Below, in pieces: positions 8,215 to 47,382 of a stretch of DNA of 64,000 bases. The stretch covers positions 1 to 64,000 of the forward strand of contig LGRX02033559.1 in NCBI GenBank assembly GCA_001247695.2, written 5' to 3'. The stretch comes from Cymbomonas tetramitiformis. Lineage: Eukaryota > Chlorophyta > Pyramimonadophyceae > Pyramimonadales > Pyramimonadaceae. How positions within the stretch are numbered: position 1 is the first letter of the stretch; every line of letters starts with the position of its first letter. Below the pieces are notes generated by a model. It searched no databases and was not told the DNA's origin. It worked only from the letters and a program-made list of their open reading frames with translations. Position numbers and translations under genes: made by a program.

Positions 8215-8398
8215 GTAAGTGCAGATTGTGGAACAGAATCTTCGTTTATTTTAAGTGTGAGTAAACTGATGCGGGCGATGTTTAGGCTCCCGGTGGCGCA
8301 CATCGGGGCGCGGGGTTACTTGGGCCCGCTAAGGTAAACGCCGGCACCGGAGCATTTGTGCATTTTTAGCTTGTTGCGAGCGTTTTATATAAGCCGGA

Positions 8399-10483: not shown

Positions 10484-11593
10484 CGGGGGAAAAAATTCAA
10501 ACGGCGCACAAATCGTTTCCTGAAGCGCCAGCAGCAACGAATCACTACTGCAGACAACAGGCATTATGACGAGGGGCTCCAGGAGTATCTGGAAAACCAA
10601 ATTCGCACCGTGTCCGACGGCATCCCGTTTCTAAGTCACGTCGCCATGCGCGCGGGGTGTTCCCATGTGGAACCGACGAATATCCTCGAGCCGAAAGATG
10701 CCGAACGGGTGAGTGGCGCGTACGGCGCCGTCACACGAGGTTGCACACTGGACCGCACGGACCTGGTCGTGGTCAAAAGGTTTTGCAAAACCTCGGGGCT
10801 AAAGCCGCACCCCAAGACCAAGCAGCTGCCCAAGGAGTTCAAGCGGTGTGCGCAGGAGCTAGTCATGACAAAACTGGCGTCGGAAGCAGCACCCACTTAC
10901 GTCGTGCCCTGTTCACGGTATGGTGTGGAGACCAGAACTCGGCAAGCGCTGCAGGTCGGGCCAGTTCCGTTCCTCCTCATGCCCGATCGCGGCCGGACGC
11001 TGTGGGAATTCATGCGGGTTGCGCCTGAGGGTGGATTAACCTTGGAGGTCAAGCTGCTACTTGCCAAGGAGTTGCTGAAGGCGTTTTCGCAGTTGCACTC
11101 CAAGGGTATCGTGCACGGCGACGTCAAGGGTAACAATGTGGTCGTTGCCGAAGCGCTACCGTGCGCGTCCGCGGGCGGCATCACGCTGCGAGTCATCGAC
11201 TTCGGAGTTGGCTGCGTCGATCGAGAAAACCTGAAGTCTGCGCATGACGAGCGTCCTCTCGGTCGAGAGCACCGCCGTTATCTTGCTCCTGAGCACCGGG
11301 ATCACGGCCCAAGCAGGCCAGGAGACATGTGGTCTGTGGGTGGACTCCTGGTCCAGCTCTTCCAGCACCCGCAGACTGGTGGCGAACGTCACCAATGGGA
11401 CTATATCCTATGTCAAGCGAAACCGCAGAATGGATTCATGAAGCATGCACTCATGCAGCGCCTGAAGGAATGCTTCCGCGTAGACATGGACAAGCGTCCG
11501 ACAGCCGGGAATCTGCTGCGCACGTTTGAGCACACTAGGATACAGACCGTCGATGAGAAGGATTTACCGCCTCGTATTGAGCCGGCTGAGTGA
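10484..11593 (+). CDS. Protein serine/threonine kinase, main exon
   Basis: An open frame of 369 codons encodes a full kinase domain. Counting from the GTG at 10610, visible elements are: glycine loop SGAYGAV near residues 35-41; the VVVK lysine at 56; catalytic loop HGDVKGNN at 169-176 with D171, K173 and N176; DFG at 197-199; APE at 226-228; DMWSVGG from 239; and the late arginine in DKRPTAG. All residues needed for activity are present. HGD instead of HRD makes it a non-RD kinase. The frame is open from 10484 but has no ATG before 10646, and a basic stretch (KKFKRRTNRFLKRQQQR) precedes the domain, so translation probably starts in an upstream exon. A TGTAAA sequence lies about 40 bp past the TGA. 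Flanked on both sides by one satellite family. Confidence 0.85.
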   Translation, partial: RGKKFKRRTNRFLKRQQQRITTADNRHYDEGLQEYLENQIRTVSDGIPFLSHVAMRAGCSHVEPTNILEPKDAERVSGAYGAVTRGCTLDRTDLVVVKRFCKTSGLKPHPKTKQLPKEFKRCAQELVMTKLASEAAPTYVVPCSRYGVETRTRQALQVGPVPFLLMPDRGRTLWEFMRVAPEGGLTLEVKLLLAKELLKAFSQLHSKGIVHGDVKGNNVVVAEALPCASAGGITLRVIDFGVGCVDRENLKSAHDERPLGREHRRYLAPEHRDHGPSRPGDMWSVGGLLVQLFQHPQTGGERHQWDYILCQAKPQNGFMKHALMQRLKECFRVDMDKRPTAGNLLRTFEHTRIQTVDEKDLPPRIEPAE

Positions 11594-11712: not shown

Positions 11713-11738
11713 ACACATACATGCATTTGCCTACCGGA
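11713..11738. repeat. Left copy of 26 bp direct repeat flanking satellite block 2
   Basis: It begins ACACATACATGCATTTGCC and matches 12254-12279 perfectly as far as I can read. It could be a target-site duplication or a recombination scar. Confidence 0.8.
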
Positions 11739-12253
11739 GGTCACGCTGGGGGACATACCGTCGCCAGCGTGGCCTGCTTCCGGTTGGTTGAAGTGTGTCA
11801 TTTTCGTGTTCACCGGGTTTCATTTTTTTAATGTGTTGAAGCCTCTGCGGACCGTGTAGCGCGTGCGCTGATCGCCAACGGGCCGGTCGCGCAACGATGC
11901 GGCGGTTATGCAAGCCTCTTGTCCCTGTTTTTTTAAGGGTGATCTTCATATAAGCCGGAGGTCACGCTGGGGACATACCGTCGCCAGCGTGGTATGCTTC
12001 TCGTCGTTTGAAGTGTTTCATTTTCGTGTTCACCGGGTTGCATTTTTAATGTGTTGAAGCCTCTGCGGACCGTGTAGCGCGTGCGCTGATCGCCAACGGG
12101 CCGGTCGCGCAACGATGCGGCGGTTACGCAAGCCTCTTGTCCCTGTTTTTTAAAGGGTGATCTTCATATAAGCCGGAGGTCACGCTGGGGACATACCGTC
12201 GCCAGCGTGGTATGCTTCTCGTCGTTTGAAGTATTTTCGTTTCGTGTTCACCT
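11734..12253. repeat. 220 bp tandem repeat, block 2
   Basis: About 2.4 units of the same family as 8399-9545, with unit starts near 11734, 11950 and 12168. Two units carry the variant GGTATGCTTCTCGTCGTTTG also seen in the last full unit of block 1. A 26 bp direct repeat flanks the block exactly (11713-11738 and 12254-12279), which suggests this block was inserted or copied into place. Confidence 0.92.
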
Positions 12254-19410: not shown

Positions 19411-20304
19411 ATGCGGCCGGGTGTCCTGCGGGCATTCTTGACGCTCGCAGGCAGTGCAGTGATTTGGCGGTGCTTGGGGCGTGTTCCTATGCCCGTTGTT
19501 ACCGTTTGGGCAATGCTAGAGACATTGAGCTGGCATCTGAGTCGATGCCCTTTCAAGACTTGGTGGTGGCGCTGTGTTACTTCGTGCTGGGGCGCTCTTC
19601 AGACGTGGTGGTCAATTGCTCGACGTTATCCTCGCCGTGAGTGCTATGGCATTTGGGTGTTTTGGGCCCTCGCCGTCGTTTGGTACGCCAGGCTCCTCTT
19701 CGTGCACGCCACTGGTGTCTACGCCGGCCTACGAGTGATTGGATGGTGGTGCCCCTCACTCAGAGGGCTGATTGTTTCCCTGGCGTGTTGGTCACGCAGT
19801 GTTGAGGCCATGCTCCTCATGATCCTCGCCTGGCTTTGGATCAGCGCTGGTCTCCATTCTGACGACGTTGCGCGCCATGTTTATCATGCTACCGACTTCC
19901 CTGTGAACGTGCGTGACAGTCGATCTGCGCAGGGGTGGACTGTCCCGTCCTTGCGCTGTTCCCAAGTTCTCTTACTGGGGCGCGTGTTCCTGCCCGCTTT
20001 GCCCGTCAGGCTTGACAAGCCTCGTTTTGCGGCGCGCTGGGCGCAGCTTCGGCGCAATCTTATGCTGCACCGCGTCGCGCAGACCGCCTACTTGACGCTT
20101 GCCTTCGTGCTCGTGGTCTTTGCTGCCGCTGGCGGGAGTTCTCGCTTAACGCACGGGGGGTGGAGAATGATGGCGCGCTTGTTCGCTTCGAACTCGCCGG
20201 TAGCCGCGGTGCGGTTCAACAGAATTTTGCGATTTTTTTCTGCTCTTGTGCGGGATTTTGTGGGTCGTCGCCGGCAAGCTGGCAGAGGATATGCCCGTAC
20301 ATGA
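19411..20304 (+). CDS. Uncertain hydrophobic ORF overlapping the Ty3 pol 5' end
   Basis: An 893-base open frame with several hydrophobic stretches (for example LIVSLACWSRSVEAMLLMIL and AYLTLAFVLVVFAAAG) and many Trp/Cys/Arg residues. It overlaps the start of the pol frame by ~60 bp. An envelope-like or other membrane protein would fit the position, but the composition could also be a chance reading of GC-rich DNA. No recognised domain. Confidence 0.25.
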   Translation: MRPGVLRAFLTLAGSAVIWRCLGRVPMPVVTVWAMLETLSWHLSRCPFKTWWWRCVTSCWGALQTWWSIARRYPRRECYGIWVFWALAVVWYARLLFVHATGVYAGLRVIGWWCPSLRGLIVSLACWSRSVEAMLLMILAWLWISAGLHSDDVARHVYHATDFPVNVRDSRSAQGWTVPSLRCSQVLLLGRVFLPALPVRLDKPRFAARWAQLRRNLMLHRVAQTAYLTLAFVLVVFAAAGGSSRLTHGGWRMMARLFASNSPVAAVRFNRILRFFSALVRDFVGRRRQAGRGYART

Positions 20305-22672
20305 TGCTATGCCATCCACACGGTTTGCTTGGGGTGCAGCGCCTTGCACTTCCTGGGAGTCTCAGCGGTCGTCGAGGCAGTGGGAGCCGGGCTGGGAGGC
20401 CAACGTCGCAGAGCAGGATGAAGTCTTGCCGTACACCGTGTTGGACGAACTTCAGCCTTTGGGCAAGACAACTGTGACCAAGGACGAGGCTGCTTGGCTC
20501 GACACTGAGCTCAATGCCACGTTTGGAGGCCATCCTGACTTCAAGGAGGAACATTGGGAGAAGATGATGGCTGTTCTTCGCAGATGCAAGGGCACCTTCG
20601 CCAACACCCCTCACGACTTGACAGGCTACAAGGGCAAGGCGGTGCACAACACGTTCTCGATCCCGTTCAAGGACGAGTCCAAGGCTGTTTACCAAAAGCC
20701 GAGGAAGTACAGCCCGGACGAGCAGGAGATCATTGACATCCACTGCAAGGAGTTGCTGGAGTATGGCTTCATCGAGCCTGCAGCCAATCATTGCAAGCAT
20801 GCAAGCAACGTCGTGGTGGCTGGCAAGAAGGATCACGAGACTGGCTTGTGGACCCAGACACGCTTCTGCATAGATCTCAGGGGTATCAACCGACACTCTC
20901 TCAAGGATAATACCTTGCCACATCGACCAGAGGAGCTTTATTATCAGAAGGTGGCGAAGGCAAGATTCAAGACGACGCTGGATGCCACCAGAGCCTTCCA
21001 CCAGATCCCTATGGCCACGGAAGAGGACAGGAGTAAGACGGCGTTTTGGTGGAAGAACCAGTTGTACCAGTACACCTCGATGCCTTTCGGGGCCGCTGGA
21101 GCAACGTCTGCCTTTGTAAGGATCATGGACTACGAGCTGCGTCACCTGCAACATTGCACGGTGGCGTATGTCGACGATGTGGTGGTCTACACTGATTCCA
21201 CGCCTGAGCAGCATCTGATAGACGTTGAGGAGGTACGGCGCACGTTAGGAGACGCTGGTATAAGGCTACACGCAGGCAAGAGCACCTTTGGGGCAGCCAC
21301 TGTGGACTTTCTGGGCTATCGCATTGGGCACAATTCTATTGGTGCGCAGGAGGCAAAGTGCAAGGTCATGCAGGACCTCCCGAGGCCCCAGGACAAGACT
21401 GGGCTCCGCTCTATTCTGGGCATGATGAACTACTATAAGAGCCTGGTGGGTGAGCCAGGGGGACCAAACTATTCTGAGATGGCACGCCCCCTCAACGACT
21501 TGCTCAAGAAAGAGATCGCAGATATCAAGGGAGCTTGGGGGAAGGAGTAGGACCAGGCGCTCCAGGACCTTAAGGACTCGCTCTGTGCTGGGAGATGTCT
21601 GAGGCCAATCGATTATGACAGGCCCCTCATATTGTACACCGACTGGAGTGTGGAGTACCTATGGCATCGGTGCAGTGCTGGGCCAGTGGACGACGATGGA
21701 AAGGAGTATATCTGCATGGCGAGCAGTCGTTCTTTGAGCAAAACGGAGAGACAGTACGCCAGCTTCAAAGGTGAGATGCTTGCAGTGGTGGGGGCAGTGC
21801 GCACGCTGAGGCAGTACCTGCATGGCGTCCACTTCACGCTGGTGACCGATCACTCGCCACTCACCACTTTGATGGAGAAGTCTGACCTCCAGGGCCAGCA
21901 TCTACGATGGGCGGTCAGCCTACAGGAGTTCGACTTCACGGTGCAGTATCGCCCGGGAGCTAAGAACAGCAATGCTGACGTGCCATCTCGTTACCCGTTA
22001 CCGTCCACGACGGACGAGACTGGGGCGAGGCACGAGCGAGATAAGGCATCTGCGCTTCACGCAGGCGTGGGGGAAGTTTACACGAAGGATTTCTGCGACA
22101 GCCTGTGCTTCATGCTGGCTGGTGACACTCCCGCAGGGGAAGAGGTGACGCCAGAGGTGCAGGTCGCTAGCTACTGCAAGATTGCCGCCAGAGAGCAGCT
22201 GGGCACGAGTCCGGTGCATCGCTTATTCGATTTGCACCATCAAGATGAGTTGGAGTGCAATCATGCGGCCCTGTTCGACACAGACCAACCCGAGCTGGCG
22301 GTCGACTCTGGGAGGCTAGCGAGAGCAGCTTGGAAGGCGCTAAGCTTGGTGCGACCCACACGAGGCACGCATGGCGAAGGCAGTCCTGCTGTATACAGCA
22401 ACGAATACTTTGAAGGTGAACGCATCTTGAAGCCTGAGAAGGTGGACACCAGGGTGCTGGACAAGCGGTTCTTCTCAGAAGCTCGTGAAGAAGGTGTGGT
22501 ATGTTATGAGCCGTGTGGAGGCCTCTGTGCTGGCCTGGAGATGTTGCTCCGCAATGGAGTAAAGGTGAATCGATACTTATATCAAGACATATCATCAAGG
22601 CAGCTCCTTCGCCGGCTTTTCAATTGCAGGAGCGATGGGTCCGACTGGGACCGGCAGCCTTGAGGAAGGCGA
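20290..22672 (+). pseudogene. Ty3/gypsy-type pol remnant: RT, RNase H, truncated methyltransferase
   Basis: Reverse transcriptase signatures appear in order: RFCIDLRGINRHSL, LDATRAFHQIPM, FWWKNQLYQYTSMPFGAAGA, AYVDDVVVYT (catalytic YVDD), FLGYRIG and LRSILGMMNYYKSL. An in-frame TAG at 21548-21550 interrupts the link to RNase H. Past it the same frame continues with LILYTDWS, SLSKTERQYASFKGEMLAVV, LVTDHSPLTTL and VQYRPGAKNSNADVPSRYP. Inside RNase H the stretch 21655-21692 is read in a wrong frame; the expected YGIGAVLGQ lies in a neighbouring frame, which implies two compensating indels. No integrase is visible. The frame ends in a C5-methyltransferase-like segment and shifts near 22598. The element is dead. 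Confidence 0.88.
22381..22672 (+). other. C5-cytosine methyltransferase-like domain fused to Ty3 pol (truncated)
   Basis: After RNase H and a ~130-residue linker, the frame reads YSNEYFEGERILKPEKVDTR, then VVCYEPCGGLCAGLEMLLRN and GVKVNRYLYQDIS. The glycine-rich GGLCAGLE followed by a strand ending in an acidic residue matches motifs I and II of DNMT/Dcm-type enzymes. A shift near 22598 moves the continuation (LQERWVRLGPAALRKA) to another frame. It stops near 22672, before the catalytic Pro-Cys motif, so no activity is possible. C5-methyltransferases captured by algal and dinoflagellate retrotransposons are known; this is a decayed example. Confidence 0.75.
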
Positions 22673-23345: not shown

Positions 23346-23837
23346 TCATAGTATTCATGATGAGCCCTGGCGTGTTCTGCTCGAGTTCGCCCGTCGGATG
23401 ATCCCGATTGGTGACCCCTTCCAGGGGCAAGCGGACATGTTCGCCGTCCGCATCCCTGCGGGCATGGACCCTCATGGACCGATCGAAGACTTCAACACCG
23501 CGCTCAAGGCTGCGACGGAGAGCAAGGGCAACGCTCATGGACGAGGACGTGAAGTCCCTTTTCATCAAGGCCCTCGTACGACACCACCTTCTACCAGCCG
23601 GTGGTGTCCCGCTTGCTTCTTCACGACCAACGAACCGCCCACGACCTCCTCACTATTCAGCATTGGGTACGTGAGTGCTACGGCGAGCACGTGCGGGCGG
23701 GCACCGCCACCGCATCCGCACACCGGTACTCCCACGGCACGCACTTCATGGAGAAGGACATCGGTGATTCGGGCACGACGAGTGAGATCGCGGACTTACG
23801 GACGATGGTCCTCGACTTGAAGCGGCAATTGGCCGAC
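23343..23837 (+). pseudogene. Gag-like protein, 5' half, interrupted by a DNA transposon
   Basis: Coding-like sequence runs in three consecutive frames: VLLEFARRMIPIGDPFQGQA in the first; LMDEDVKSLFIKAL in the second, after a shift near 23535; and YQPVVSRLLLHDQRTAHDLL to DLKRQLAD in the third, after a shift near 23575. Size and spacing resemble a retroelement capsid-type Gag, though I match no family by name. The frame is broken at 23837 by the transposon and resumes at 34079: removing the insert and one CGAC copy gives RQLAD-FLVAAESE in frame. The two small indels show decay either before or after the insertion. Confidence 0.6.
23834..23837. other. Target-site duplication CGAC, left copy
   Basis: CGAC directly precedes the left terminal repeat and recurs directly after the right one at 34079-34082. 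Both copies sit in the same codon register of the interrupted Gag-like frame. Confidence 0.85.
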
Positions 23838-23872
23838 AACACACTATTCGATGAAAATGATATTCTCATGTG
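23838..23872 (+). repeat. Left terminal inverted repeat
   Basis: The first 23 bases match the reverse complement of the right end perfectly. About 31 of 35 match overall. The adjoining AAAATGATAT is repeated inside the repeat and again at 28949-28958 in the transposase gene. Confidence 0.88.
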
Positions 23873-24103
23873 AAAATGATATTGCCTTACTTACCTCATG
23901 ATAGGATTAAAAAGCCGCATTTTAACAGTCAAGAACATGCAAGTGCAGATTGTGCATTAGATTTAATGGTTTTTATGGTACAAAATTGAGGTCAAATGCA
24001 CTTTTTCGAAATCTAGGAGGAGTGAAAACACAAAGAACTTTTGACTCAGAATCTATATACACGTTATACACATATTATTTACATGTTTTTTTTCCGTCTT
24101 GCT

Positions 24104-24865
24104 TTACGCGTCCACATCAGGTGCTACCGCTACCGCTACGCAATTATCAAAAGCTTCGTCTTCATCGGAATCATCCAATTCATTCAAGTCACCTAGGTCC
24201 TTGCGCGTGCGTTTGGATTGTTGTGCAAGCAAAGCGACGACTATCTGCGCGTATTGCTCGTTCGGTATACTCCGTTCGGGGTCTTTCGCATTCACATTCC
24301 ATGCCAGCACTATTTCATTCTTATCGAAAGTCTCGGTAGACGGTCGGTGCCCCGGTGGCGCTGCGAAAGCTCCTACGTGACTCGCAAGTTGCTTGCCGAG
24401 GTGCTTCTTCTTGGTGTCGGTGTGCTTTTTGGGTTGGAAATAGCGATATTGCAGCTGTTGAGTTGACGGATAGCGCGCCTCCACCTTCACCAAGTACAAC
24501 GGATCCGACCATTCGCTTCGCTTCAGTTGTACGCGGAAAGCGAACTTGTCGTTTTCAGATTCCACCGCGAGAGCCACCGCAAAGCTGCCGACTGTCATCT
24601 GGCCGTAGGTGACCTCCCACTGGGCGTTGTCCACGTACTGCTCTGCTCGCTTTTGGGCTCGACCTTGGTGTTTCCGTTTACCGTTGTACACTTCTATCGG
24701 CGCTCGATCAATTCGGCGTTGGATGCGCACGGGTATAGCGGGGACGGCGGCAGCCCCGGCAGCTTCTATCGCCAACGCGGGCGCCTCTATCAGTCGAACC
24801 AAGGTGGCATTGCGCTCGATGGCGATTTTCTCGGGATGCTGGAAGGGTATCGCGGGCGCTTGACA
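24104..24865 (-). CDS. Transposase, C-terminal part beyond the foldback insertion
   Basis: This 253-codon stretch (TAA at 24104-24106) is the continuation of the transposase: removing the foldback element and one 10 bp duplication joins AGGE to CQAPAIPF in frame. The first third is Ala/Arg-rich, the middle contains VEVTYGQM-like beta-rich sequence (QWEVTYGQMTVGSFAVAL), and the tail is acidic (LNELDDSDEDEAFDN). I assign no domain. It lacks its own good start codon, so as it stands it is a stranded exon part. Typical DUF7869-family proteins also have a variable C-terminal tail. Confidence 0.7.
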   Translation of the reverse strand, partial: CQAPAIPFQHPEKIAIERNATLVRLIEAPALAIEAAGAAAVPAIPVRIQRRIDRAPIEVYNGKRKHQGRAQKRAEQYVDNAQWEVTYGQMTVGSFAVALAVESENDKFAFRVQLKRSEWSDPLYLVKVEARYPSTQQLQYRYFQPKKHTDTKKKHLGKQLASHVGAFAAPPGHRPSTETFDKNEIVLAWNVNAKDPERSIPNEQYAQIVVALLAQQSKRTRKDLGDLNELDDSDEDEAFDNCVAVAVAPDVDA

Positions 24866-24875
24866 TTCTCCACCA

Positions 24876-25602
24876 TACTCGTGAAGGTATCGACTGATTA
24901 GACTGATTGATTAATTCAGTCAGTGACATGAGCGACAAAAACCAAATCAGTTCATGTCACCGACTGAATACGATGTCACCAACCGAATACCAATTAATTC
25001 AGAAAACTCTCTCACCTCGCCCATCACATATATAAGTAATAATTTATTGCGGTGGGGGGCGACGTATATTAATATTACCGCCAGAAGTTAAGGATATATA
25101 ATTATATATATGATTTATGGTATATATAATTTATATAACATATTTGCTTGAAATTTCTTGGCGCTTCGCGATAAAGAGGGGGGGGGAGGTGGGGGGAGTT
25201 CTTGGGGTAGTGGGGGTAGCGGGGAAGCGTTTCGTGGGGGGTTCACGAGGTGGAAGCGTTGGGGAGGGGGAGGGGCCCCCCCCACCTCCCCACCCCCCCT
25301 CTTTATCGCGAAGCGCCAAGAAATTTCAAGCAAATATGTTATATAAATTATATATACCATAAATCATATATATAATTATATATCCTTAACTTCTGGCGGT
25401 AATATTAATATACGTCGCCCCCCACCGCAATAAATTATTATTTATATTTGTGATGGGCGAGGTGAGAGAGTTTTCTGAATTAATTGGTATTCGGTTGGTG
25501 ACATCGTATTCAGTCGGTGACATGAACTGATTTGGTTTTTGTCGCTCATGTCACTGACTGAATTAATCAATCAGTCTAATCAGTCGATACCTTCACGAGT
25601 AT
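24876..25602. mobile_element. Foldback (Mutator-like) element inside the transposase gene
   Basis: Two arms of about 325-330 bp are near-perfect inverse copies (TACTCGTGAAGG...CCTTCACGAGTA), leaving a G-rich loop of about 80 bp centred near 25237. Flanking 10 bp direct repeats TTCTCCACCA lie at 24866-24875 and 25603-25612. Very long inverted arms plus 9-11 bp target duplications are hallmarks of Mutator-type non-autonomous elements. It encodes nothing. It breaks the transposase reading frame, adding ILVKVSTD and a stop to the upstream part. The almost identical arms and perfect duplication imply a recent insertion. Confidence 0.85.
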
Positions 25603-26621
25603 TTCTCCACCAGCAGTTAGGTGGCGCTGTTTCTCGATGACATCCTCGCGCCAAAACTTTTCGTGCACCTCCGTGAGCTTTGTGCCCAAAATGTCCTTCA
25701 ACGCCTGTAAGGTATGCTCAAGCTTTTCGATGCCTTCTTCGGTAAAAGGAATCGGCTTGATGTATCCAGGCCCCGCGACAGGGGGTATAGAAACAAGCTT
25801 TGGCAATGGAGTCTCGGGTAACCATTTTGGTGAAATGGAATACTGTTTGTACTGCATGCCCACTTCGCCGTGCTCGTTCATCTTGAACTTGAAAGCCTGC
25901 TGTGCCAAAATATTGTGGCAATCGAAGACGTGACCATCAAACCAAGAGCTGAAGTCGAAGATCTTCTCGGTGTGCTCGCATATTACATCATCCGTAAAGC
26001 ATTCTTGTGCGACCTCTATCATCTCGTCGAGCGTCCAAGCTTGCTTGCGTCGTAGACGCACGGAGAAGCGTGAAAATATCTGGTCAATGTTCTCGTGCGT
26101 ATGTCCCACCAACAGAAAGTTGAGTTTCACCTTGCGAAAGACGCCCGTGTGCACCAGCCAAGCTGCGTATGCCAACATCAACTTGCTCTTGTTGGTGCTC
26201 ACATTGTCAAGCTGTACATACAATACTTTCGGCATCGGGTATGAATTTTCCCCGTCCCCGTTGCGTCGATGCTCTTGACTGCGGAGGATATCCCGGTGCA
26301 AAACGTTGACAAGGAAGTTCGCATCGTCCTTGAAGTTGGCGTAGTTGAAATCCATGAAGCGGCCCACGTTCTCGATCATGCTCCCCATGTTGTGCACGTC
26401 AAGGAAGTCCTTAGAGTCCAGATGTTTAGGGATACGTCGAAAGTGTGTCAGTCGGGTGGTCCACTGCGTCATGCCATCGATGATCACCGAGGCATACTTA
26501 TGCCAAGTTTTGTTCATGGCAATGCTCTTGGTCATATTCGCTTTACGACCATGTTTGTAGAACTTCTGGCGCTCCGCTCGTGCGATTGCATGATGTTTGT
26601 TGAGAGGCCCGTTGTATTGCG
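25603..26621 (-). CDS. Transposase exon 3, catalytic DUF7869-like domain
   Basis: After an acceptor at 26622-26623 the exon begins AQYNGPLNKHHAIARAER. It contains three conserved blocks of the DUF7869 family: SVIIDGMTQ, YVQLDNVSTN and FLLVGHTHENIDQIFSRFSV. The spaced Asp residues in the first two and the Glu/Asp of HENID are the likely metal ligands of an RNase H-like (DDE/D) fold. This family is widespread in algae, oomycetes and animals and is thought to be transposon-derived; its biochemistry is not well described. The exon is open up to the foldback insertion at 25603. Confidence 0.8.
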
Positions 26622-26704
26622 CTGTGCATGATACACAAATTTGGGTCAGTGAACAAATTACATAAGCATATAAACACATCACAAAGCTAATCATGAATAT
26701 TCAC

Positions 26705-27143
26705 CTTTTTGAGATTTGGTTAAGCCTTCCTTCAATAACTTGAAGGACGCGCAAACATCGCAGTGAGAAAATCGGTTCACCGATGGAATCTTTAGCCACT
26801 TGCTGCAATCCTCTTCAAATATTTTGTACCAGTAACTGAGAGAGAGTTTTTTGCTCTCCTCATTCTCACCCAAGCTCTGAAGGTACTCGTCCCACAGCTC
26901 TTCGATGGTCAATCCATCCGAAAGGTGCTTCTCGGGTTTGTGAGGTTGGGGTTGTCCGTATTCGTCCGCGTATTTCTCGAGCCATGCGACGACCGACTCG
27001 CGTTTCAGGGAAATCTTGCGGTTGTCCTCCTCGTACGTCAATCCATGAACAAACGTGTGTCGGCCCTCGAGCACGCGTGTTCGACAGTCTTGAAGATACC
27101 CGTAGCTGATGCCGTAAGACATATAGTAGAACTTAAAGCACAC
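26705..27143 (-). CDS. Transposase exon 2
   Basis: Begins VCFKFYYMSYGISYGYLQDC directly after acceptor GTAACAG and ends ...LTKSQK with donor AAAAAG-GTGAAT at 26704. The 83 bp intron to exon 3 is phase 1 on both sides and rebuilds a GCG codon. The region between VCxKF and HCDVCASFK is the segment that precedes the catalytic part in DUF7869 proteins. HCDVC may bind zinc together with upstream cysteines. The exon reads on from exon 1 in phase 0. Confidence 0.78.
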
Positions 27144-27335
27144 CTGTTACAAAACAAAAGACACCGTCACTCAAAAATATTTAACAAATTATCCAAGGAA
27201 ACGCATAAGGGTTTTTATAGGTTGGCTGGATCTAAGACGCTTGGGAGACACCCCCAGCACTGCACGTCTGCAGGCGGGACGGCCGTCGCGTGCTCGTCAG
27301 CACTCTCCGTCACGCCTTAAATCTGCGCAACCTAC

Positions 27336-27407
27336 ACCCTTAGTGGGAATCGAACCCACGAGTGCGAGGTTCATAGCCTAGCGCCGTATCAACTCGACCA
27401 ACGTCAT
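27336..27407 (-). pseudogene. tRNA-like sequence in transposase intron 1
   Basis: Read on the minus strand there is a perfect B box (GGTTCGATTCC) in a 5 bp T stem (GTGGG/CCCAC), a 4 bp D arm around AGTTGATA, and an anticodon-like arm CTAGG-CTATGAA-CCTCG with one mismatch (anticodon position ATG). The acceptor ends do not pair, so it is unlikely to be a working tRNA. A tRNA pseudogene or tRNA-derived SINE head is the best reading. Confidence 0.45.
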
Positions 27408-27511
27408 GAATGTGTACTTTATGAAATTCAGATAGAAATTTATGATACAATATTCCACATTCCTGTGATGAACAAGATCACACAATCTATCACAAGGTCC
27501 AAGAAAAATTT

Positions 27512-28238
27512 CGCTTTGACCAGAGGCCGTTCATTAGCTAATGAACGGTTCCCGCAGCCAAAGTGTCTATGTGTGGGTCGCGCTTTGGCCAGAGGCCGTT
27601 CATTAACTAATGAACGGTTCCCGCAGCCAAAGTGTCTATGTGTGAGTCGCGCTTTGGCCAGAGACCGTTCATTAGCTAATGAACGGTTCCCGTAGCCAAA
27701 GTGTCTCTGTGTGAGTCGCGCTTTGGCCAGAGGCCGTTCATTAGCTAATGAACGGTTCCCGCAGCCAAAGTGTCTAATTGTGAGTCGCGCTTTGGCCAGA
27801 GGCCGTTCATTAGCCAATGAACGGTTCCCGCAGCCAAAGTGTCTAATTGTGAGTCGCGCTTTGGCCAGAGGCCGTTCATTAGCTAATGAACGGTTCCCGC
27901 AGCCAAAGTGTCTAATTGTGAGTGGCGCTTTGGCCAGAGACCGTTCATTAGCTAATGAACGGTTCCCGCAGCCAAAGTGTCTAATTGTGAGTGGTGCTTT
28001 GGCCAGAGACCGTTCATTAGCTAATGAACGGTTCCCGCAGCCAAAGTGTCTAATTGTGAGTCGCGCTTTGGCCAGAGGCCGTTCATTAGCTAATGAACGG
28101 TTCCCGTAGCCAAAGTGTCTAATTGTGAGTCGCGCTTTGGCCAGAGGCCGTTCATTAGCTAATGAACGGTTCCCGCAGCCAAAGTGTCTAATTGTGAGTC
28201 GCGCTTTGGCCAGAGGCCGTTCATTAGCTAATGAACGA
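27512..28238. repeat. Palindrome array 1: eleven 69 bp units in transposase intron 1
   Basis: Each unit contains the perfect 18 bp palindrome GTTCATTAGCTAATGAAC extended by CC/GG, flanked by GCTTTGGCCAGAG on the left and CCCGCAGCCAAAG on the right, which extend the dyad imperfectly. Units start at about 27512, 27581, 27650 and so on with 69 bp spacing and few substitutions. The last unit stops 18 bp short of the exon 1 donor. Long ORFs through the array arise because 69 is divisible by three. Confidence 0.93.
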
Positions 28239-28256
28239 GTTCAAAAATAAACATAC

Positions 28257-28919
28257 CTGCTTCTTGGCCAAAAAGTATTTGAAGTCGAACTTGTCCTCAG
28301 ATTGTAAGCTGTTTTTTAGCAAGTCTTTGATGAAGTATTCCTTCCTATCTTTTTGCGACATGCTGAAAGTATTTTCGCGAAAAGACTTGATATCTGCCGA
28401 TGAGAAAGATAGACAGCAGTACGACTTGCAATTGCACTTAATGGTTTCTGCCATTGATATACTCTCAGCCTGCAAACGTCGCTGCTTGATACTAATTACG
28501 CCTGTATATTGTTTCATGCGAATGTCGGATTCGTACGGTTTGCGCGTTACAATCTGCTTGTTTACTTCACCGTTAATGCACCGAAGAGGGTCTTCTTCAA
28601 GCAAGTCTAAACTTGTCTCTGAAAATTCTAAATCAAGTCTGCTTTTTATCTCTTGTAAGTCAATTTCGCGCAAAGCGCGTGTGCCGGAAACGCGTGAAGA
28701 ATTAGAGCTAACGTCCGATCTAGACGTCAAAGGCACGTTCCAAAGAACCAATTGCGTATTTGCGCTCGGGGCTGTGCTTGGAATTGGCTCATGATTAAAA
28801 AAGTCAGCCCCTAATTCCATGGAGTCTTCAATAACTATTCCCGGACACGGTTTGCAGATAATCTCGCAACCCTCATCAAAAGGAATAGAAAACATATTTT
28901 CGTCAAAATTAGCCGTCAT
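28257..28919 (-). CDS. Transposase exon 1, N-terminal cysteine-containing region
   Basis: The first ATG in frame is at 28919 (MTANFDENMF); an in-frame TAA lies just upstream of a TTG at 28973. A low-complexity Ser/Leu/Glu part is followed by IKCNCKSYCCLSFSSADIKS, then FRENTFSMSQKDRKEYFIKD and YFLAKKQ before donor GCAG-GTATGT at 28256. The CxCxxxCC cluster followed by a helical linker is characteristic of the family's N-terminus. The four coding pieces sum to 2883 bp, exactly 961 codons, if the foldback is removed. Confidence 0.78.
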
Positions 28920-29243
28920 TAGCTTATGAAGCCGTTTTTTTCGTTCTGAAAATGATATGAACTTGCGAGTCAACGGAGAATTTCTATCTTACTGAATCGA
29001 TCGATTCTCGATTTCAGCGCAAATGACACCAGAATATCTTCAAATCATATCCTTGATCTGAACAGACCGAATCAGGAAGCGACAGCAAATGTCATTTTTG
29101 AAAGAAATTGTCATCGATATTTGACATGTCATTTTCAGCCGCCAGAAATGACTTACACAATTTTGCTAAAGTTACATCACTTTTTCAAAGTTTCTTCACA
29201 CACACCCCTTTCACAGTTGACAGCCAATTTCTCTCATTTCAGT
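28920..29243. promoter_or_regulatory. Bidirectional promoter region between transposase and cargo gene
   Basis: 324 bp separate the two diverging start codons. It contains the perfect palindrome GAATCGATCGATTC (28993-29006), AAAATGATAT (28949-28958) and two TGTCATTTT motifs (29090-29098, 29127-29135), with related AATGACA/AATGACT copies near 29022 and 29146. The same motifs lie in the terminal inverted repeats, so the transposase could bind both the ends and its own promoter. That is inference. Confidence 0.5.
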
Positions 29244-29801
29244 ATGGCGACAGCAGAAACATTTGAAGTACTGAGGGAACATCATATTTTCAAATTGTAT
29301 GTTGACAACAAGTGGAGCATTATTAGAACGCTAGAAACCGACAATCCTGCAGACACCTTGCGAATAATTATCCACTCAGATGACCCAAACGAGCCGGATG
29401 ACATAATGTTTTTCAGTTTTCTCCAATACAATTCTACGACTGTAGAAGAAGGTACCCTTGTTCCGGATAGACGCGTTGCGTGGACAGCAATTGTAGGCCA
29501 GACTCCAATTTTGTATTTCGTCGCTATTAAGAACAACAAGCAAACTGTAATCGAACTGGACAGCGCAAACTTTGAGGAAGACTTGAGCTGTCCTAGGCAC
29601 ACGAATCGGCTTTCGGCTTATGAAAATTTGAAAAGTAGAGCAGAAGAAAAACAAAAAAGCAGGGAATTCTATATAGCGAGCTATGTAAACACGGCGTGGA
29701 AAGCGTCGATTACAGCTCCTTTCTGGCAAAGCAAGAGGCCACCGCGTGGAGTGATTGATGACCTCAGCAGTGGTGGCGAGATACCTGTTGTACAGGCTAC
29801 G
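29244..29801 (+). CDS. Transposon cargo gene, 5' exon, unknown domain
   Basis: Starts at ATG 29244 (MATAETFEVLREHHIFKLYV); an in-frame extension upstream exists but reads through AT-rich leader. It ends near a GTACGT donor at 29802, or an earlier GT, since the phase with the next exon is unresolved. A predicted alternating beta/alpha pattern, with TEFYIASYV-like sequence near the end, matches nothing I know. It diverges from the transposase gene and shares its promoter. Whether it is spliced to the downstream exons or is a separate small gene is not certain; same-strand order and the lack of a stop before the array favour splicing. Confidence 0.55.
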
Positions 29802-29834
29802 GTACGTCCCTTTCGCGCCTTGAGCCTGGACCGG

Positions 29835-30262
29835 GGCGGAAGGCGTTCATTAGCTAATGGACGCTTTCGGCCTCGAAAAGCGCGCCCTGAGCCTGGACCG
29901 GGGCGGAAGGCGTTCATTAGCTAATGAACGCTTTCGGCCTCGAAACGCGCGCCCTGAGCCTGGACCGGGGCGGAAGGCGTTCATTAGCTAATGAACGCTT
30001 TTCGCCTCGAAACGCGCGCCCTGAGCCCTGACCGGGGCGGAAGGCGTTCATTAGCTAATGAACGCTTTCCGCCTCGAAACGCGCGCCTTGAGCCTGTCCT
30101 TTGGCGGAAAGCGTTCATTAGCTAATGAACGCTTTCCGCCTCGAAACGCGCGCCCTGAGCCTGGACCGGGGCGGAAGGCGTTCATTAGCTAATGAACGCT
30201 TTCCGCCTCGAAACGCGCGCCCTGAGCCCTTATCGGGCTGGAAGGCGTTCATTAGCTAATGA
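29835..30262. repeat. Palindrome array 2: seven ~67 bp units on the cargo-gene side
   Basis: Carries the same 18 bp palindrome GTTCATTAGCTAATGAAC as array 1 but with GC/GC flanks, extended to a perfect 38 bp dyad in some units (GGCGGAAA...TTTCCGCC). ATTAGC occurs near 29849, 29916, 29983, 30050, 30117, 30184 and 30251. Linkers (CTCGAAACGCGCGCCCTGAG) are unrelated to those of array 1. The last unit ends about 20 bp before a splice acceptor (TTGTCCCAG, 30282). Confidence 0.92.
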
Positions 30263-30282
30263 GCAGTTTCGTCTTGTCCCAG

Positions 30283-31106
30283 GCTGCCAGGAGAACGGCA
30301 GTGGAGCTTGCTGCCCAACGCGCCCTTCAAGGACCTGGTGGCTCCAGAGCGTATTACTGGAGCGGGCGCTAATGTGGATATGTCTCAAGTGGCCACCCCA
30401 TCTGAGGCAAGGAAGGCGGCCGAGGTGGCTGCATGTGGGTGGCACGCTAAGCTGAAAGTGGAGCATGCATCAAAGATGGAATATGAGGAGAAAGCAGAGC
30501 TGTGCAAGCAAATCGAGATGGAGCACCGGTGGCCAAATCCGATGGATTTCGACGAGGCGGCGGAGCAAGGGAGTGTGTTTCGTCTCCCCATCAAATGCCT
30601 GTACCACGCGACGGGGTACGAGGCATGCCGGGATCAAGAGAGGGGCTGGGTGAACGAGATCAAGTCCAGCAGGAAGGAGAACCCGTGGGCCCCTTTTAAT
30701 GCGGGTCTTGTTGCGATCGACGATGTCAAAACCCGTGCCGAATTCTCCCTGAAAAAAGCTCTGAGGGGAGGATACAGCGGCAAGGTTTTTGGGCACCAGC
30801 ACTGTTATCAAGCCACCGACGAGTGTCACGAGGAAATCCCGGCGGAGATAGCCTTCGCGTACTTCGAGAGCAAGATCTACATCGGTCTCACGCCTGACAT
30901 GATTCGGTTCTTAGGCGAGATGCAGAACATGATCGACCAGAAGCAGAAAGGCAAAGACAACACTCAGTTCATGCAAGGGCTCCGTTCGACCCTTTTCGAA
31001 AAGCATGGGGTCGTGTACAAGGTTTACCGAGAAGCGTTGATCTCCGAGTTCGTCGCCAGCGTCCCCGAGGACACCGAACGGGGTACCCCTTATCAACCTG
31101 GGTACA
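30283..31106 (+). CDS. Transposon cargo gene, middle exon
   Basis: After acceptor CTTGTCCCAG the good frame reads LPGERQWSLLPNAPFKDLVA and continues through RWPNPMDFDEAAEQGSVFRL, YSGKVFGHQHCYQATDECH and YIGLTPDMIRFLGEMQNMI. The composition is that of a soluble globular protein. I recognise no domain. The frame runs into the MITE-like element at 31107 and hits a TAA within it. A GT lies at the boundary (GG-GTACAG), so the MITE may lie in an intron or may have disrupted the exon. Confidence 0.6.
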
Positions 31107-31673
31107 GTAATCACTCACCAATAAGAAAGTCCTAAATTTGGGGTCAGCCAGCGAATTTCGTCAAGTTGTGACCCCCCCCCTTCCCGCCAGCGCCAGCGAC
31201 CTATGAAATTGCTAAGAATAAGAAATCCCGATTTCGTAGCTCAGCCAGCCAATTTCTTTTTCTTATTACTTAAGGAGGAGGCAGCCAGCTATCATGAAAT
31301 TGGCACTCAGCGACGGCCACAGTAGTAAAATTTTAGTACTGGAGTTTTAGTTTGGGTAACTCACTTTTCGCCGACAAGCCAGCGTTTGCACCTCCGTTCG
31401 AAAAAATTCAATGGTCTGTATGATATTTTTACTGAGATAAATTGTGTATAACCATCAAAATCCTTGTTAAATCGAGTAAACCCACCAAATAATCCAGCCA
31501 AAATTTCTTAACTAGCTTTCACTATGATTCAAGCCAGCCAGCCCCTTGATTTCTTATTTTGGCCAATTTCTTAAGAAATTAAAGCTAGCCAGCAAATTTC
31601 GTCAAGTTGTGACCCCCCCCCCAAACGCTGGCTGGTTTCTTATTGCTACTATTTCTTATTGGTGAGTGATTAC
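31107..31673. mobile_element. MITE-like element with 22 bp terminal inverted repeats
   Basis: GTAATCACTCACCAATAAG... at 31107-31128 is perfectly inverted at 31652-31673. Inside, AATTTCGTCAAGTTGTGACC followed by a C run occurs as a direct repeat near 31154 and 31594, and AGCCAGC/GCTGGCT recurs about ten times. It encodes no protein and has no clear target duplication. A non-autonomous DNA transposon nested in the cargo gene. Confidence 0.75.
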
Positions 31674-31697
31674 CTGTGACATGAGGGCGGAGGGCTG

Positions 31698-32198
31698 GTG
31701 AAAAAAATGGCGGAATTCGAATCAGAGCATGGATTTTCAGTCCCGGATCCCGAGAAATATCCCAAGGGATTCCAGTACATGGAGAAGCGGGGGACGTTTG
31801 AGAACGAGGAAAACCCTGAGGGAGACCCTGGGGTAGAGCTGACGGTGACGGTGCTGAACGATGACATCGACGCTCACCTCGATCGGGTCACAGATTGGTA
31901 CCCCGTAATGTCTCACTTGAACCAGTCGATGGAGACGCATGTGAAGGAAGTAGCGATGTCCAAGCATCAAGTGCTCGGCGGCGTGCAAATCAACCACTAC
32001 TTCATGCACTGGACAATTGCCAATTTCCGGCCGCAGACGTGGGCCCTCTGCGTTAGCATCATGGAGGCTTACAGAAGGTTTGACCTGAAGGGCATGAAAA
32101 ACCCTTTGGCTTCGAAGACCAAAAAGCGCAAGGCCTCATCTTCGCCCGCTAAGGGACCCGCCAAGAAATCTGGCAAGAAGGGCACCTCCAACCGACAG
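31698..32198 (+). CDS. Transposon cargo gene, exon before the methyltransferase exon
   Basis: Frame KKMAEFESEHGFSVPDPEKY continues through VMSHLNQSMETHVKEVAMSK and NHYFMHWTIANFRPQTWALC to a basic tail (KTKKRKASSSPAKGPAKKSG), which could be a nuclear-localisation or DNA-contact segment. It ends CAG with donor GTAAAT at 32199, phase 0. The start is uncertain: ATG at 31707, or an acceptor upstream (for example TTTTCAG, 31740). No domain recognised. Confidence 0.6.
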
Positions 32199-32296
32199 GT
32201 AAATTACTTTTTACTTCTGCTTCAAACAGTGTTCTCCCTCCCAAAGCATCCTTTTCTATATTTTAAGACATGCTAAAAATGTTTTTTTACTTACAG

Positions 32297-33805
32297 ATAG
32301 AAGACGAGGTGCAACGAGGAGGCGGGGACCACGGAGCGGGCTCGTCTAGAGGGGCAGGCATTTTGGTGGAAGAAGCTCAGTTTCTCCACAATGCCAAATC
32401 CATGGGTATGACGTTCTGGATTAACTTGGGCGGCTTGGCGCGGGAGGCGGAGTTCGACAAGGTGGACACTTATCTGCGCCAGATTATTAACAAGGACTTG
32501 TCAGTAAAAGAGGGGGGCCGGATGATAAGCCAGTTCAAGAAGGAACGCATGGTGCAGAAGCACTTGGTGTCCGCGGCGGGATTGGAAACCTGGGACGAAT
32601 TCAAGGACGAGTTCACCCTCTACTGGAGCTCCCAAGAGAAAATCGAGTCGTTGATCGGCTGCTTACCTTCAACTCAGGGGGGAGCGCGCCGGGGGGGGGC
32701 TGGGGAAGTTCCGCACGCGATCTTGAATTACGTCGAGAACGCGCGGGCGAATCTCAAAGAAGCGCAGGCACCAAGCGCGGCTCACATCCAAGGCTTGCAA
32801 CAGATCGAGGTGAAAGTCGACATCAAACTCTATCGGGAGGCGCGGACCGACGGGCCGGAGGCTAAGGCTCCAGGAGAGGCAGGTCTGGAGGACGACGAGC
32901 CCACACATCAGGAGAACGTGCCGATGCTACCTCGTTGGAAGATCGTCAAGGGCAGCATGAACGATATGAAGGACGTCCCGAGACTGCCCTTCACGGGGAC
33001 GATCATCGACTGCAATTACGAACTTGACAAGGAGAAGACTCCCGACGCGATGACCAAGAAGGAGGTGCAACCGTTCCTGGAGTCTTTCAACGCCAAGACC
33101 ACCTCCCCGGCATGGACAGTCGCTATTTTTTGCGGTTTCGCCCAACAAAACGATTTCCTGGAGGTGATTGACAATTACTGCTCCGGCCGCGCGGAGCGGT
33201 TCTTCTGGCACAAGGCGAACGTGCACATGAACCCCAACAAGTCCGCACGCTACAATGACGTTGAATGTGGCGTCCTGGGGTACCATGTAAAAAGCGATGC
33301 CCAGGGGGAGTCTTCTAAAAAGCCGGAGTGGATGTTCAACTTTGATCTGGGGGATGGTGAACGTTACAGCCGCGCGTCACTTTTGCGCGGCTTCCCGGTT
33401 GTGCACCAGATGTTCAAACGCGAGGGCAAAGTCGTGAATAACCATCAGAAACCCCTAGCACTGTTGATGGAGCTGATCCAGTGCCACATGCTCGGTGACA
33501 ATCCGGGCAAGACGGATGAGAACGGCCATCCACTCAACTGGATTCTCGACGCTTGCTGCGGCGTCGGCTCGACGTCCATGGCCGCCATGAGGTGTGGTAT
33601 GAACGCGATCGGCTTCGACCACGACCAGTACATGGTCAGCTCTGCGCAGCAACGGCTGACCAATTTCGACGCCGAGCCCGATCAAAAGGCCGAGACGGAG
33701 CCCAAGACGAAGAGCGAACCGACGGCGAAGGGAAAGGAAGCAGCCACTGCCGAATCTGAGGAAGAAGACTTAGATGGCAATGACGCAGATGATAATGATG
33801 AATAA
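32297..33805 (+). CDS. N4/N6-type DNA methyltransferase-like protein, terminal exon of the cargo gene
   Basis: Joined by a 98 bp GT-AG intron (32199-32296, phase 0). About the first 240 residues are helical and charged. Then come TGTIIDCNYELDK in the motif IV position, FFWHKANVHM, KPLALLMELIQCHM, and the SAM-binding block WILDACCGVGSTSMAAMRCG with IGFDHDQYMVSSAQQRL (33537-33660). This order (catalytic motif first, motif I last) is the beta-class arrangement of N4-cytosine/N6-adenine enzymes. The catalytic D/N/S-PP-Y/F/W appears as DCNY, so activity is doubtful or divergent. Acidic C-terminal tail, TAA at 33803. AATAAA follows near 33895. The role in the transposon is unknown; modification or protection of element DNA is a guess. 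Confidence 0.72.
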   Translation: MEDEVQRGGGDHGAGSSRGAGILVEEAQFLHNAKSMGMTFWINLGGLAREAEFDKVDTYLRQIINKDLSVKEGGRMISQFKKERMVQKHLVSAAGLETWDEFKDEFTLYWSSQEKIESLIGCLPSTQGGARRGGAGEVPHAILNYVENARANLKEAQAPSAAHIQGLQQIEVKVDIKLYREARTDGPEAKAPGEAGLEDDEPTHQENVPMLPRWKIVKGSMNDMKDVPRLPFTGTIIDCNYELDKEKTPDAMTKKEVQPFLESFNAKTTSPAWTVAIFCGFAQQNDFLEVIDNYCSGRAERFFWHKANVHMNPNKSARYNDVECGVLGYHVKSDAQGESSKKPEWMFNFDLGDGERYSRASLLRGFPVVHQMFKREGKVVNNHQKPLALLMELIQCHMLGDNPGKTDENGHPLNWILDACCGVGSTSMAAMRCGMNAIGFDHDQYMVSSAQQRLTNFDAEPDQKAETEPKTKSEPTAKGKEAATAESEEEDLDGNDADDNDE

Positions 33806-34043
33806 AATAGTAGGATTTGTCGACCGCCCTGACTGATAGTATCAGTCATGCCTCGACGGTATAGGGTGAAAAGTACTCTACTCGTAAACATTTGAATAAA
33901 GAATGATACATGTATGCATATTTCGGTGTTTTCATTGTACGCATACTGCACTTTTCTACCGTGTTGCCTTTATGTATCCCTATTTCGCGCATAAATATCA
34001 CTAAACCCTGATTTTTATGAAATATATATAAATCCAAAAATGA

Positions 34044-34078
34044 CATATGATAATGTCATTTTCATCGAATAGTGTGTT
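34044..34078 (-). repeat. Right terminal inverted repeat
   Basis: Inverse of 23838-23872. It contains TGTCATTTT (34054-34062), and just inside is AAAAATGACA (34036-34045), motifs also found in the central promoter region. Confidence 0.88.
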
Positions 34079-34082
34079 CGAC
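34079..34082. other. Target-site duplication CGAC, right copy
   Basis: Matches 23834-23837. It reads TTC GAC TTC in the Gag-like frame that continues rightward. Confidence 0.85.
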
Positions 34083-35459
34083 TTCCTCGTCGCCGCCGAG
34101 TCTGAGCCGTCCCCACGGGGATTTACCCCTCGCGCGGACAAGCCGGACCGCCGCGTCAAGACCCGCTTCGCGGCCTCGCCCCTCCCCAAAGGGGGGAATT
34201 GGTCTCAATCCGTCTCCAAGAAGGTGGCCTTCCATCGCGACACCGGCGCGACCATCCCGTACTGCCAAAATCAGGTGTGCGCTAAGGGGAAGGCGCGGCA
34301 TTGGCATCGGGGCTGCCCGAACGGGGGCAGGACCGGACTCTCGGCCTACGCCTTCGCTGAGGAGGCCGAGAACTCCGTGCTAGCCGGCGCGAAGTTTCAA
34401 CACGCCATCGACCACGACGACCCCGTGGAGTTCGACGCCCTTTGCATGCTTGCGGGCGGGAAGCCGGAGGTCTTCACCGATCTTTCCGCGTGCTCGTTCT
34501 GCGAGGAGGACGGTGAGGTCCTCGTGTCCGCCGTCACCGAGATCTCTGAGATGGCACGCACGGCTGGGGCTTCGACATTCAACATCAACACCTTCACTGC
34601 CGACTTGCCGGTGGTGTCGGAGCCGACCGCACACTCCCCACCCGCGTCGGTTGAATCCGAGGAGGAATGGACCGGTCCGCCGAACCCCTTCTGCCCTCCC
34701 GTCATCCGCACGTTTGCCGACTTCATTGAGAGCACGGGGATTGCATTGGGGGCGCCCGACGAGCCGGCCGCGAGCATGAATTTGCTCTCCGCGGTTGAGG
34801 CACCGGAGCGCGTGATGGACTACAAGCCCGCGACCTACGCCGCGAGCGACGATGACGACGAGGATGCCTCGGTGGCACCGCCGCGGCCACGGTACGGCTG
34901 TGGGAACGGCATTCCGGGCTTCGGGAGGTCTCTTCTCACTTCGTCCTTGGTGTGTGCACTGTTTGTGATTTGTGCCACCGCCGCACCGCACACCGTTGCC
35001 GATGTCGGTGGTGCCGATGCGCGCACATGCACGGCTCCACCGGTCGGTGGTGCTACGTGGACTGCCTCGGCAGTCCCGGCTACGGGAACTTCACCAACTG
35101 TAATGATTCGTAACGATCTTGGCGACGCAGTGGATGGTGCGAGCACGGCTGCTATTCCGCCGCATCGACAGACGCGGTATCGGGAGCTGCGGCAGGGATT
35201 CCACACTCTCCGCAATGTCCCGCGGCCGCCATGGCTATATGACCCCGACCCTGATTATTTTCCGCCGTCACCACCTTACCCGCCACCGCCGTACTCGTCC
35301 GATGACGAGGAGCCGAGCTCTGGTGACCATGCGGCTGTGATCGAGGATTCAGCAATTCCTTCTACGAATGATTTACCACCGGCCCCGGAGGCCGGCAACT
35401 GCTTCACCCTCACGCTGCTCCGGGCCGGACCGCCAGTCCCACAGACCTCTAGTGGCTGA
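34079..35459 (+). CDS. Gag-like protein, 3' part, with zinc-knuckle-like motif and a hydrophobic segment
   Basis: Continues the frame of 23343-23837 after the transposon. It begins DFLVAAESEPSPRGFTPRAD. A Cys/His cluster, CQNQVCAKGKARHWHRGC, is knuckle-like but not canonical CCHC spacing. RTFADFIESTGIALGAPDEP is conserved in the second copy at 59170. SLLTSSLVCALFVICATAA is hydrophobic enough for a membrane segment. The C-terminus is Pro/Tyr-rich with PPSPPYPPPPYS. It ends TGA at 35457 with no pol following, so it is perhaps a Gag-only non-autonomous element. Confidence 0.6.
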
Positions 35460-47249: not shown

Positions 47250-47382
47250 CCCCTTCTAAAGGGTGGCTGTCTAGTTGTCCTACTGCCAGTTCTTGGGAAT
47301 GGTGCCCCTTCAGTCAGCAATGCCCAGTTCTTGGGATGGTGCCCCTCCAGCTCCAGTCTTTAGGATGGTGCCCCTTCAGTCT
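47250..47382 (-). other. Copia 3' untranslated region with polypurine tract
   Basis: In sense, AGAAGGGG lies directly before the 3' LTR (47250-47257) and is the likely polypurine tract. Upstream, three copies of a ~40 bp motif (GGGGCACCATCCCAAGAACTG) fill the space to the stop codon. Confidence 0.75.

What the first reader, a model, noticed from the sequence alone, without database searches (positions are those of the whole stretch)
23838..34078. A 10.2 kb DNA transposon pairing a DUF7869-like transposase with a methyltransferase-like cargo gene
Seen: matching 35 bp inverted ends, a CGAC duplication in register with the interrupted ORF, and two diverging multi-exon genes that fill the space between. 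Known: DUF7869 proteins are widespread and thought transposon-linked, but complete elements with defined ends are rarely described. Inference: the plus-strand gene is cargo that marks or protects element DNA, or controls its own silencing. The termini contain CACTA, yet the 4 bp duplication and the transposase do not fit that superfamily cleanly, so this may be a poorly described group.
Basis: partly seen in the sequence, partly recalled or inferred. Interest (0 to 1): 0.9.

Follow-up and report, generated by a model that had tools for sequence, protein, structure and literature searches.

The report
Algal transposon with methyltransferase partner gene
This is a real DNA transposon, most likely from the marine green alga Cymbomonas, whose transposase gene lies beside a DNA-methyltransferase-like gene; gene lists suggest the same pairing at two other loci, so the element may mark or regulate its own DNA.

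Summary
Confirmed: 23838-34078 is one mobile element, with 35-bp inverted ends (23 of 23 identical at the tips), a CGAC duplication, and flanks that rejoin into one open frame. The minus-strand gene is a DUF7869 protein; motifs and a predicted model suggest an RNase-H-fold DDE-type transposase. The plus-strand gene is a divergent beta-class N6/N4 DNA methyltransferase-like protein. New here: (i) the inner terminal motif GAAAATGAYAT recurs exactly only in the shared promoter; (ii) both first introns are tandem palindromes with one shared core; (iii) the methyltransferase lacks the PP of DPPY in 25 of 25 relatives holding the site, keeping the Y in 24. This copy is broken: a 9-bp-TSD inverted-repeat element splits the transposase; a frame loss and another insert break the methyltransferase. 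CACTA is incidental. Methyltransferase accessory genes in algal DNA transposons are in print (Sola1-1_Ec32), so the kind is known; I did not find this transposase family or regulatory layout in the papers searched. Copies across the genome could not be recovered (genome search did not complete), and whether DUF7869 is Sola under another name was not testable.

The parts
23834..23837 (.). target-site duplication, left copy (CGAC)
34079..34082 (.). target-site duplication, right copy (CGAC)
23838..23872 (+). left terminal inverted repeat
34044..34078 (-). right terminal inverted repeat
28257..28988 (-). transposase exon 1 (open frame; start codon probably 28919); holds a Cys-rich stretch
   Evidence: splice junction to exon 2 agrees with P0011
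26705..27143 (-). transposase exon 2
   Evidence: 85% identical to P0011 over 151 aa
24104..26621 (-). transposase exon 3 with DUF7869 (PF25273); interrupted by the nested element
24866..25611 (.). nested inverted-repeat element (arms 24875-25196 / 25281-25602, 98% complementary) with its 9-bp duplication TTCTCCACC; splits the transposase frame
27512..28242 (.). 69-bp x 10.6 tandem array of palindromes in transposase intron 1
27220..27410 (-). possible tRNA-derived SINE in transposase intron 1 (B-box-like GGTTCGATTCC on minus strand)
   Evidence: by eye only; ARAGORN and Rfam found nothing
28930..29243 (.). divergent promoter region with two exact copies (28948, 29126) and one one-mismatch copy (29089) of the terminal motif
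29244..29801 (+). methyltransferase-gene exon 1 (186 aa), weakly like the N-termini of P0049 and P0051
29814..30262 (.). 67-bp x 6.7 tandem array of palindromes in methyltransferase-gene intron 1
30283..32198 (+). methyltransferase-gene exon 2 (conserved GHQH domain); frame lost near 30345-30370 and interrupted by the insert at 31107-31673
31107..31673 (.). 567-bp nested insert with 22-bp perfect inverted ends; its own duplication not resolved
32297..33805 (+). methyltransferase-gene exon 3 with the N6/N4 methyltransferase domain (DCNY site and DACCGVGST block)
   Evidence: junction agrees with P0027

Best explanation
Shown by sequence: one two-gene DNA transposon about 10.2 kb long, inserted in an open frame with a 4-bp duplication, now inactivated by later insertions and a frame loss. 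Supported by alignment and a predicted model: the DUF7869 protein has the DDE layout (D, then D, then E/D) on an RNase-H-like fold and is the transposase. Inferred: it cuts the element at its 23-bp identical tips and rejoins it at staggered 4-bp targets, and it (or the partner) also binds the GAAAATGAYAT boxes next to the tips and in the shared promoter, so that transposition and expression of both genes are tied together. Inferred with less certainty: the partner protein (an N-terminal domain of unknown kind, a GHQH domain, a beta-class N6/N4 methyltransferase domain) recognises element DNA, candidate sites being the palindrome arrays in both first introns, and modifies it, marking element copies for self-regulation, protection or escape from host silencing. 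The pair is a conserved unit rather than a chance capture.
Confidence: 0.6

Rival explanations
1. The partner is a dead methyltransferase kept as a DNA-binding accessory or regulator (for example a repressor or an end-bridging factor); it modifies nothing.
For: PP of motif IV is replaced (DCNY 10, DVIY 5, DGNY 4, DCVY 4, DSMY 1, DGNC 1) in 25 of 25 relatives with the site; 2 of 27 lack it. The SAM block is also unusual (DACCGVGST or DAGCGVATA).
Against: The D and Y of motif IV are invariant in the three methyltransferase alignments, which reach relatives about 37% identical, as expected if SAM binding and base handling are still selected; the one exception, P0047, is a chimeric gene model outside them.
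Confidence: 0.28
2. It is an ordinary member of the Sola superfamily (4-bp duplications) carrying the already reported ParB-methyltransferase accessory gene; DUF7869 is simply Pfam's name for such a transposase.
For: 4-bp duplication; Ectocarpus Sola1-1_Ec32 has an accessory gene on the strand opposite the transposase with an N4/N6 methyltransferase domain (PMC12477816); Sola2 elements have 4-bp duplications (PMC3627910).
Against: The Sola2 duplications described are AT-rich, here CGAC (n=1); no ParB match in Pfam or PDB profile searches. No Sola protein was at hand to compare.
Confidence: 0.35
3. Two unrelated elements or a chance host-gene capture: the methyltransferase gene was picked up by this copy only.
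For: 19 of 21 named Cymbomonas methyltransferase models are listed without a DUF7869 neighbour among our hits.
Against: The same two families have adjacent tags at two further loci, one of them a diverged subfamily; the shared promoter carries terminal motifs; matched intron arrays.
Confidence: 0.05

Closest known systems
Sola1-1_Ec32, Ectocarpus (Dinatale et al. 2025, PMC12477816; passages read)
   Same: DNA transposon with an accessory gene on the strand opposite the transposase encoding an N4/N6-type DNA methyltransferase; [quoted passage not shown]
   Different: 21.5 kb; assigned to Sola1; ParB-like domain named there, not detectable by profile here; DUF7869, terminal boxes in the promoter and intronic palindrome arrays are not mentioned in the passages read
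Mariner elements of marine giant viruses with methyltransferase plus endonuclease genes (Bao and Jurka 2013, PMC3627910; passages read)
   Same: transposase plus methyltransferase in one element
   Different: Mariner transposase, endonuclease as third gene, viral host; methyltransferase domains named there are Methyltransf_26 and cytosine-C5
TET/JBP-carrying fungal DNA transposons (Kojima 2025, PMC12730594; passages read)
   Same: base-modifying accessory gene linked to transposases
   Different: dioxygenase that oxidises methylcytosine; other superfamilies, none with 4-bp duplications in the passages read
DNMT-carrying retrotransposons of dinoflagellates and charophytes (PMC5890265; passages read)
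   Same: mobile element with its own DNA methyltransferase
   Different: retrotransposons; cytosine-5 enzymes

Membership tests
DUF7869 (PF25273) | profile match above the curated cut-off | tested here: met
   162.8 bits, cut-off 26
DDE-type transposases | RNase-H fold with D, D, E/D at strands 1 and 4 and the last helix | tested here: inconclusive
EnSpm/CACTA | termini beginning CAC and 3-bp duplication | tested here: not met
   ends begin AACACACTATT; 4-bp CGAC; definition from PMC12730594 passages
EnSpm/CACTA (CMC group) | C(2)C and H(3-4)H motifs between second D and last E | tested here: not met
   no CxxC between D153 and E191 of P0001; definition
Zisupton (KDZ) | 8-bp duplication | tested here: not met
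   4 bp; definition
Sola | 4-bp duplication | tested here: met
   CGAC, one copy; described as AT-rich in Sola2, which does not fit
Sola | transposase homologous to Sola1, 2 or 3 | not testable with these tools
   no Sola sequences held
beta-class N6/N4 DNA methyltransferase (PF01555) | profile match above cut-off | tested here: not met
   window copy 24.5 bits against 26.7; relative P0040 31.9, met
beta-class N6/N4 DNA methyltransferase | motif IV (D/N/S)PP(Y/F/W), upstream of motif I (recalled) | tested here: not met
   order fits (176-190 residues upstream in 19 of 23 rows, 95-151 in 4 rows) but PP absent in 25 of 25
ParB-methyltransferase accessory proteins of algal transposons | ParB-like DNA-binding domain | tested here: inconclusive
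   conserved GHQH block resembles ParB GxHR by eye (recalled motif); no profile match

The most novel reading that the evidence does not exclude
DUF7869 defines a DDE transposon superfamily not yet described as such, whose members carry as a core second gene a self-recognising, non-canonical amino-methyltransferase. One motif set serves both ends and the shared promoter, and palindrome arrays in both first introns are the methylation or binding targets, giving a mobile element with its own closed epigenetic control circuit.
Probability: 0.2. Interest if true: 0.75.

Novelty: new variant of a known kind. Interest (0 to 1): 0.53.

Why it matters
It gives defined ends, duplication, gene order and probable regulatory sites for a DUF7869 element; the name DUF7869 was found in none of the 5.39 million papers searched. 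It adds a case in which a eukaryotic DNA transposon keeps an amino-methyltransferase-like gene, with a concrete, testable candidate for where it acts. With a Copia element about 13 kb away that carries its own Dam-type adenine methyltransferase domain, it suggests that adenine or N4-cytosine methylation may be a recurrent tool of mobile elements in this alga.

Tried and rejected
CACTA/EnSpm membership: rejected (ends, duplication, motifs). Intact active copy: rejected (nested insertion in the transposase, frame loss and insert in the partner). Viral relatives: scans of viral contigs with both protein alignments matched 67 and 28 stretches by pattern, none confirmed as a relative; exact scans with 22 bp of the end and with the 20-bp palindrome gave 0; this does not exclude a viral link. 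Genome contigs gave one locus, L001, 33% identical, in a bacterial MAG, probably a contaminant contig; not studied further. tRNA and Rfam scans: nothing. PDB sequence searches with the transposase profile (E<=1) and the first methyltransferase profile (E<=0.1): nothing; a wider methyltransferase profile best met MboIIA adenine methyltransferase at E 0.23, too weak to use. ParB by profile: nothing. CpG ratio shows no depletion in the element (1.08, flanks 0.86 and 1.00), so it says nothing for 5mC. The 567-bp insert's duplication was not resolved. The methyltransferase model was too poor for a fold search. My first motif count missed a relative with DGNC; recounted.

Full report
What is there. 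The stretch 23838-34078 is bounded by 35-nt inverted repeats (91% complementary) whose outer 23 nt are identical and found nowhere else in the window. CGAC sits at both sides. Joining the flanks with one CGAC gives a single open frame of about 553 codons, so the insertion interrupted an open frame. By eye that frame has a Cys/His run like a zinc knuckle (Pfam found no family above its cut-off in the two halves), and reverse transcriptase and RNase H domains lie just upstream, so the target is probably an older retrotransposon. The whole stretch therefore moved as one unit.

Host. Relatives whose source names an organism come only from Cymbomonas tetramitiformis: 5 of 26 DUF7869 hits and 16 of 22 methyltransferase hits, up to 98% identical; the rest are metagenome or unnamed entries. 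Window GC is 52.3% against 51.4% in the published long-read assembly (PMC10675990, passages read). Host identity is an inference, but a strong one.

Partner gene. Exons on the plus strand are 29244-29801, 30283-32198 and 32297-33805. The last exon is 98% identical to P0027. N6_N4_Mtase is weak in the window (E 3.1e-5, under the cut-off), but 15 of 17 aligned relatives match at E<=0.01, PHROG 67 (DNA methyltransferase) matches 16 of 17, best 1.1e-13, and P0040 passes the Pfam cut-off. Motif order is that of beta-class amino-methyltransferases (class recalled): the D..Y site lies 176-190 residues before the SAM block in 19 of 23 rows and 95-151 in the other 4. Yet motif IV reads DCNY (10), DVIY (5), DGNY (4), DCVY (4), DSMY (1) or DGNC (1): PP is absent in 25 of 25 relatives with the site, the Y is kept in 24, and 2 of 27 lack the site (the search pattern required the D). 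The middle of the protein has a GHQH block invariant in 6 rows that looks ParB-like by eye but finds no ParB profile. Exon 1 resembles the start of P0051 and P0049 weakly (25-26% over 80 aa, E 1e-4 and 3e-5 for single comparisons), so it probably belongs to the gene.

Pairing. Two more loci appear to carry both families side by side: CYMTET_38921 (P0008) with CYMTET_38922 (P0032), and CYMTET_55576 (P0006) with CYMTET_55575 (P0049), each pair listed on contigs of equal length. Adjacent tags are read as neighbours; I did not see the contigs or orientations. P0006 is 64% (first part of exon 3) and 48% (second part) identical to the window transposase, and P0049 43% to the window methyltransferase, so the pairing would be old. 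With 5 and 21 named models among 37,366 genes (count from PMC5741210), two neighbours by chance have probability about 1e-5, computed after the fact. P0045 is a single model that fuses a transposase C-terminus to a methyltransferase. Against this, 3 of the 5 and 19 of the 21 models show no such neighbour in our lists.

Regulatory layout. The inner terminal motif GAAAATGAYAT has five exact copies in 64 kb: three at the ends and two in the 315-bp space between the genes (0.07 expected). With one mismatch allowed there are four more, one at the right end, one in the same space, two elsewhere. Testing all 10-mers of the outer 60 bp, the promoter holds 10, shuffles average 0.24 and none of 2000 reaches 10; it is the top of 600 windows. 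The region was chosen after the motif was seen. Separately, both first introns consist largely of tandem palindromes, 69 bp x 10.6 and 67 bp x 6.7, with the same core TCATTAGCTAATGA: with up to 2 mismatches 18 copies in the arrays, one at the probable transposase start codon and none elsewhere in 64 kb. Four stretches tested (one and two units of each array) fold into strong hairpins (z -3.4 to -10.1). P0030 begins MNSFVLSQ, which fits translation of the last repeat unit and the acceptor site, so that copy may keep the same intron end (inference).

State of this copy. A 728-bp inverted-repeat element with 9-bp duplications TTCTCCACC lies inside the transposase frame; relatives such as P0001, P0002 and P0008 read straight through that point. 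The partner gene loses its frame near 30345-30370 and has a 567-bp insert. Relatives with uninterrupted frames exist for both genes. This copy could at best be moved in trans.

How it probably works. Shown: ends, duplication, protein families. Supported: DDE-type transposase, repeated pairing. Inferred: cut-and-paste at staggered 4-bp targets; binding to end and promoter boxes coupling movement and expression. Less sure: the partner modifies element DNA, the arrays being the first place to look. The altered motif IV leaves a non-catalytic role open (0.28).

Relation to print. Ectocarpus Sola1-1_Ec32 carries, on the strand opposite its transposase, a gene with ParB-like and N4/N6 methyltransferase domains, and the authors cite similar green and red algal cases and propose self-modification (PMC12477816, passages; the two works they cite were not seen). 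Mariner-methyltransferase elements (PMC3627910, passages), TET/JBP-bearing fungal transposons (PMC12730594, passages) and DNMT retrotransposons (PMC5890265, passages) are further analogues. So the kind is known. DUF7869 itself occurs in no paper of the library searched, and none of the passages I read describe the promoter-end motif sharing or the twin intron arrays. Whether DUF7869 is Sola under another name could not be tested.

Verdict. Real, well bounded and more interesting as a probable conserved two-gene unit than as a cargo capture, but a variant of a known kind, with mechanism still to be shown.

Noticed in passing
window 46839-54793 (ORF 47383-54351, minus strand): LTR retrotransposon of Copia type with 413-bp LTRs 100% identical and one uninterrupted 2322-aa frame; it carries a Dam-type N6-adenine methyltransferase domain (PF05869, 33.6 bits, cut-off 28.1; NCBIfam phage_N6A_met 30.8 bits, below its cut-off of 97) between Pol_BBD and integrase, with an NPPF motif. 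Looks like a very young element with its own adenine methyltransferase.
   Followed up: partly
window 24866-25611: Inverted-repeat (foldback-like) element with 322-nt arms, 84-nt spacer and 9-bp duplication, a length usual for Mutator-like elements (recalled).
   Followed up: partly
window 31107-31673: 567-bp element with 22-bp perfect inverted ends inside the partner gene; duplication unresolved.
   Followed up: partly
window 27220-27410: tRNA-like stretch on the minus strand by eye, possibly a SINE; not found by ARAGORN or Rfam.
   Followed up: no
window 1-5338: Long satellite array with units of about 169-179 bp and multiples.
   Followed up: no
window 20204-22663 and 34083-35459: Reverse transcriptase and RNase H frames upstream of, and an interrupted Cys/His-bearing frame around, the element.
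   Followed up: partly
window 8387-9529 and 11734-12252: Two separate arrays of a 218-220-bp unit with consensus units alike by eye.
   Followed up: no
window 10484-11593, plus strand: Frame with a protein kinase domain (PF00069, E 4.7e-16).
   Followed up: no
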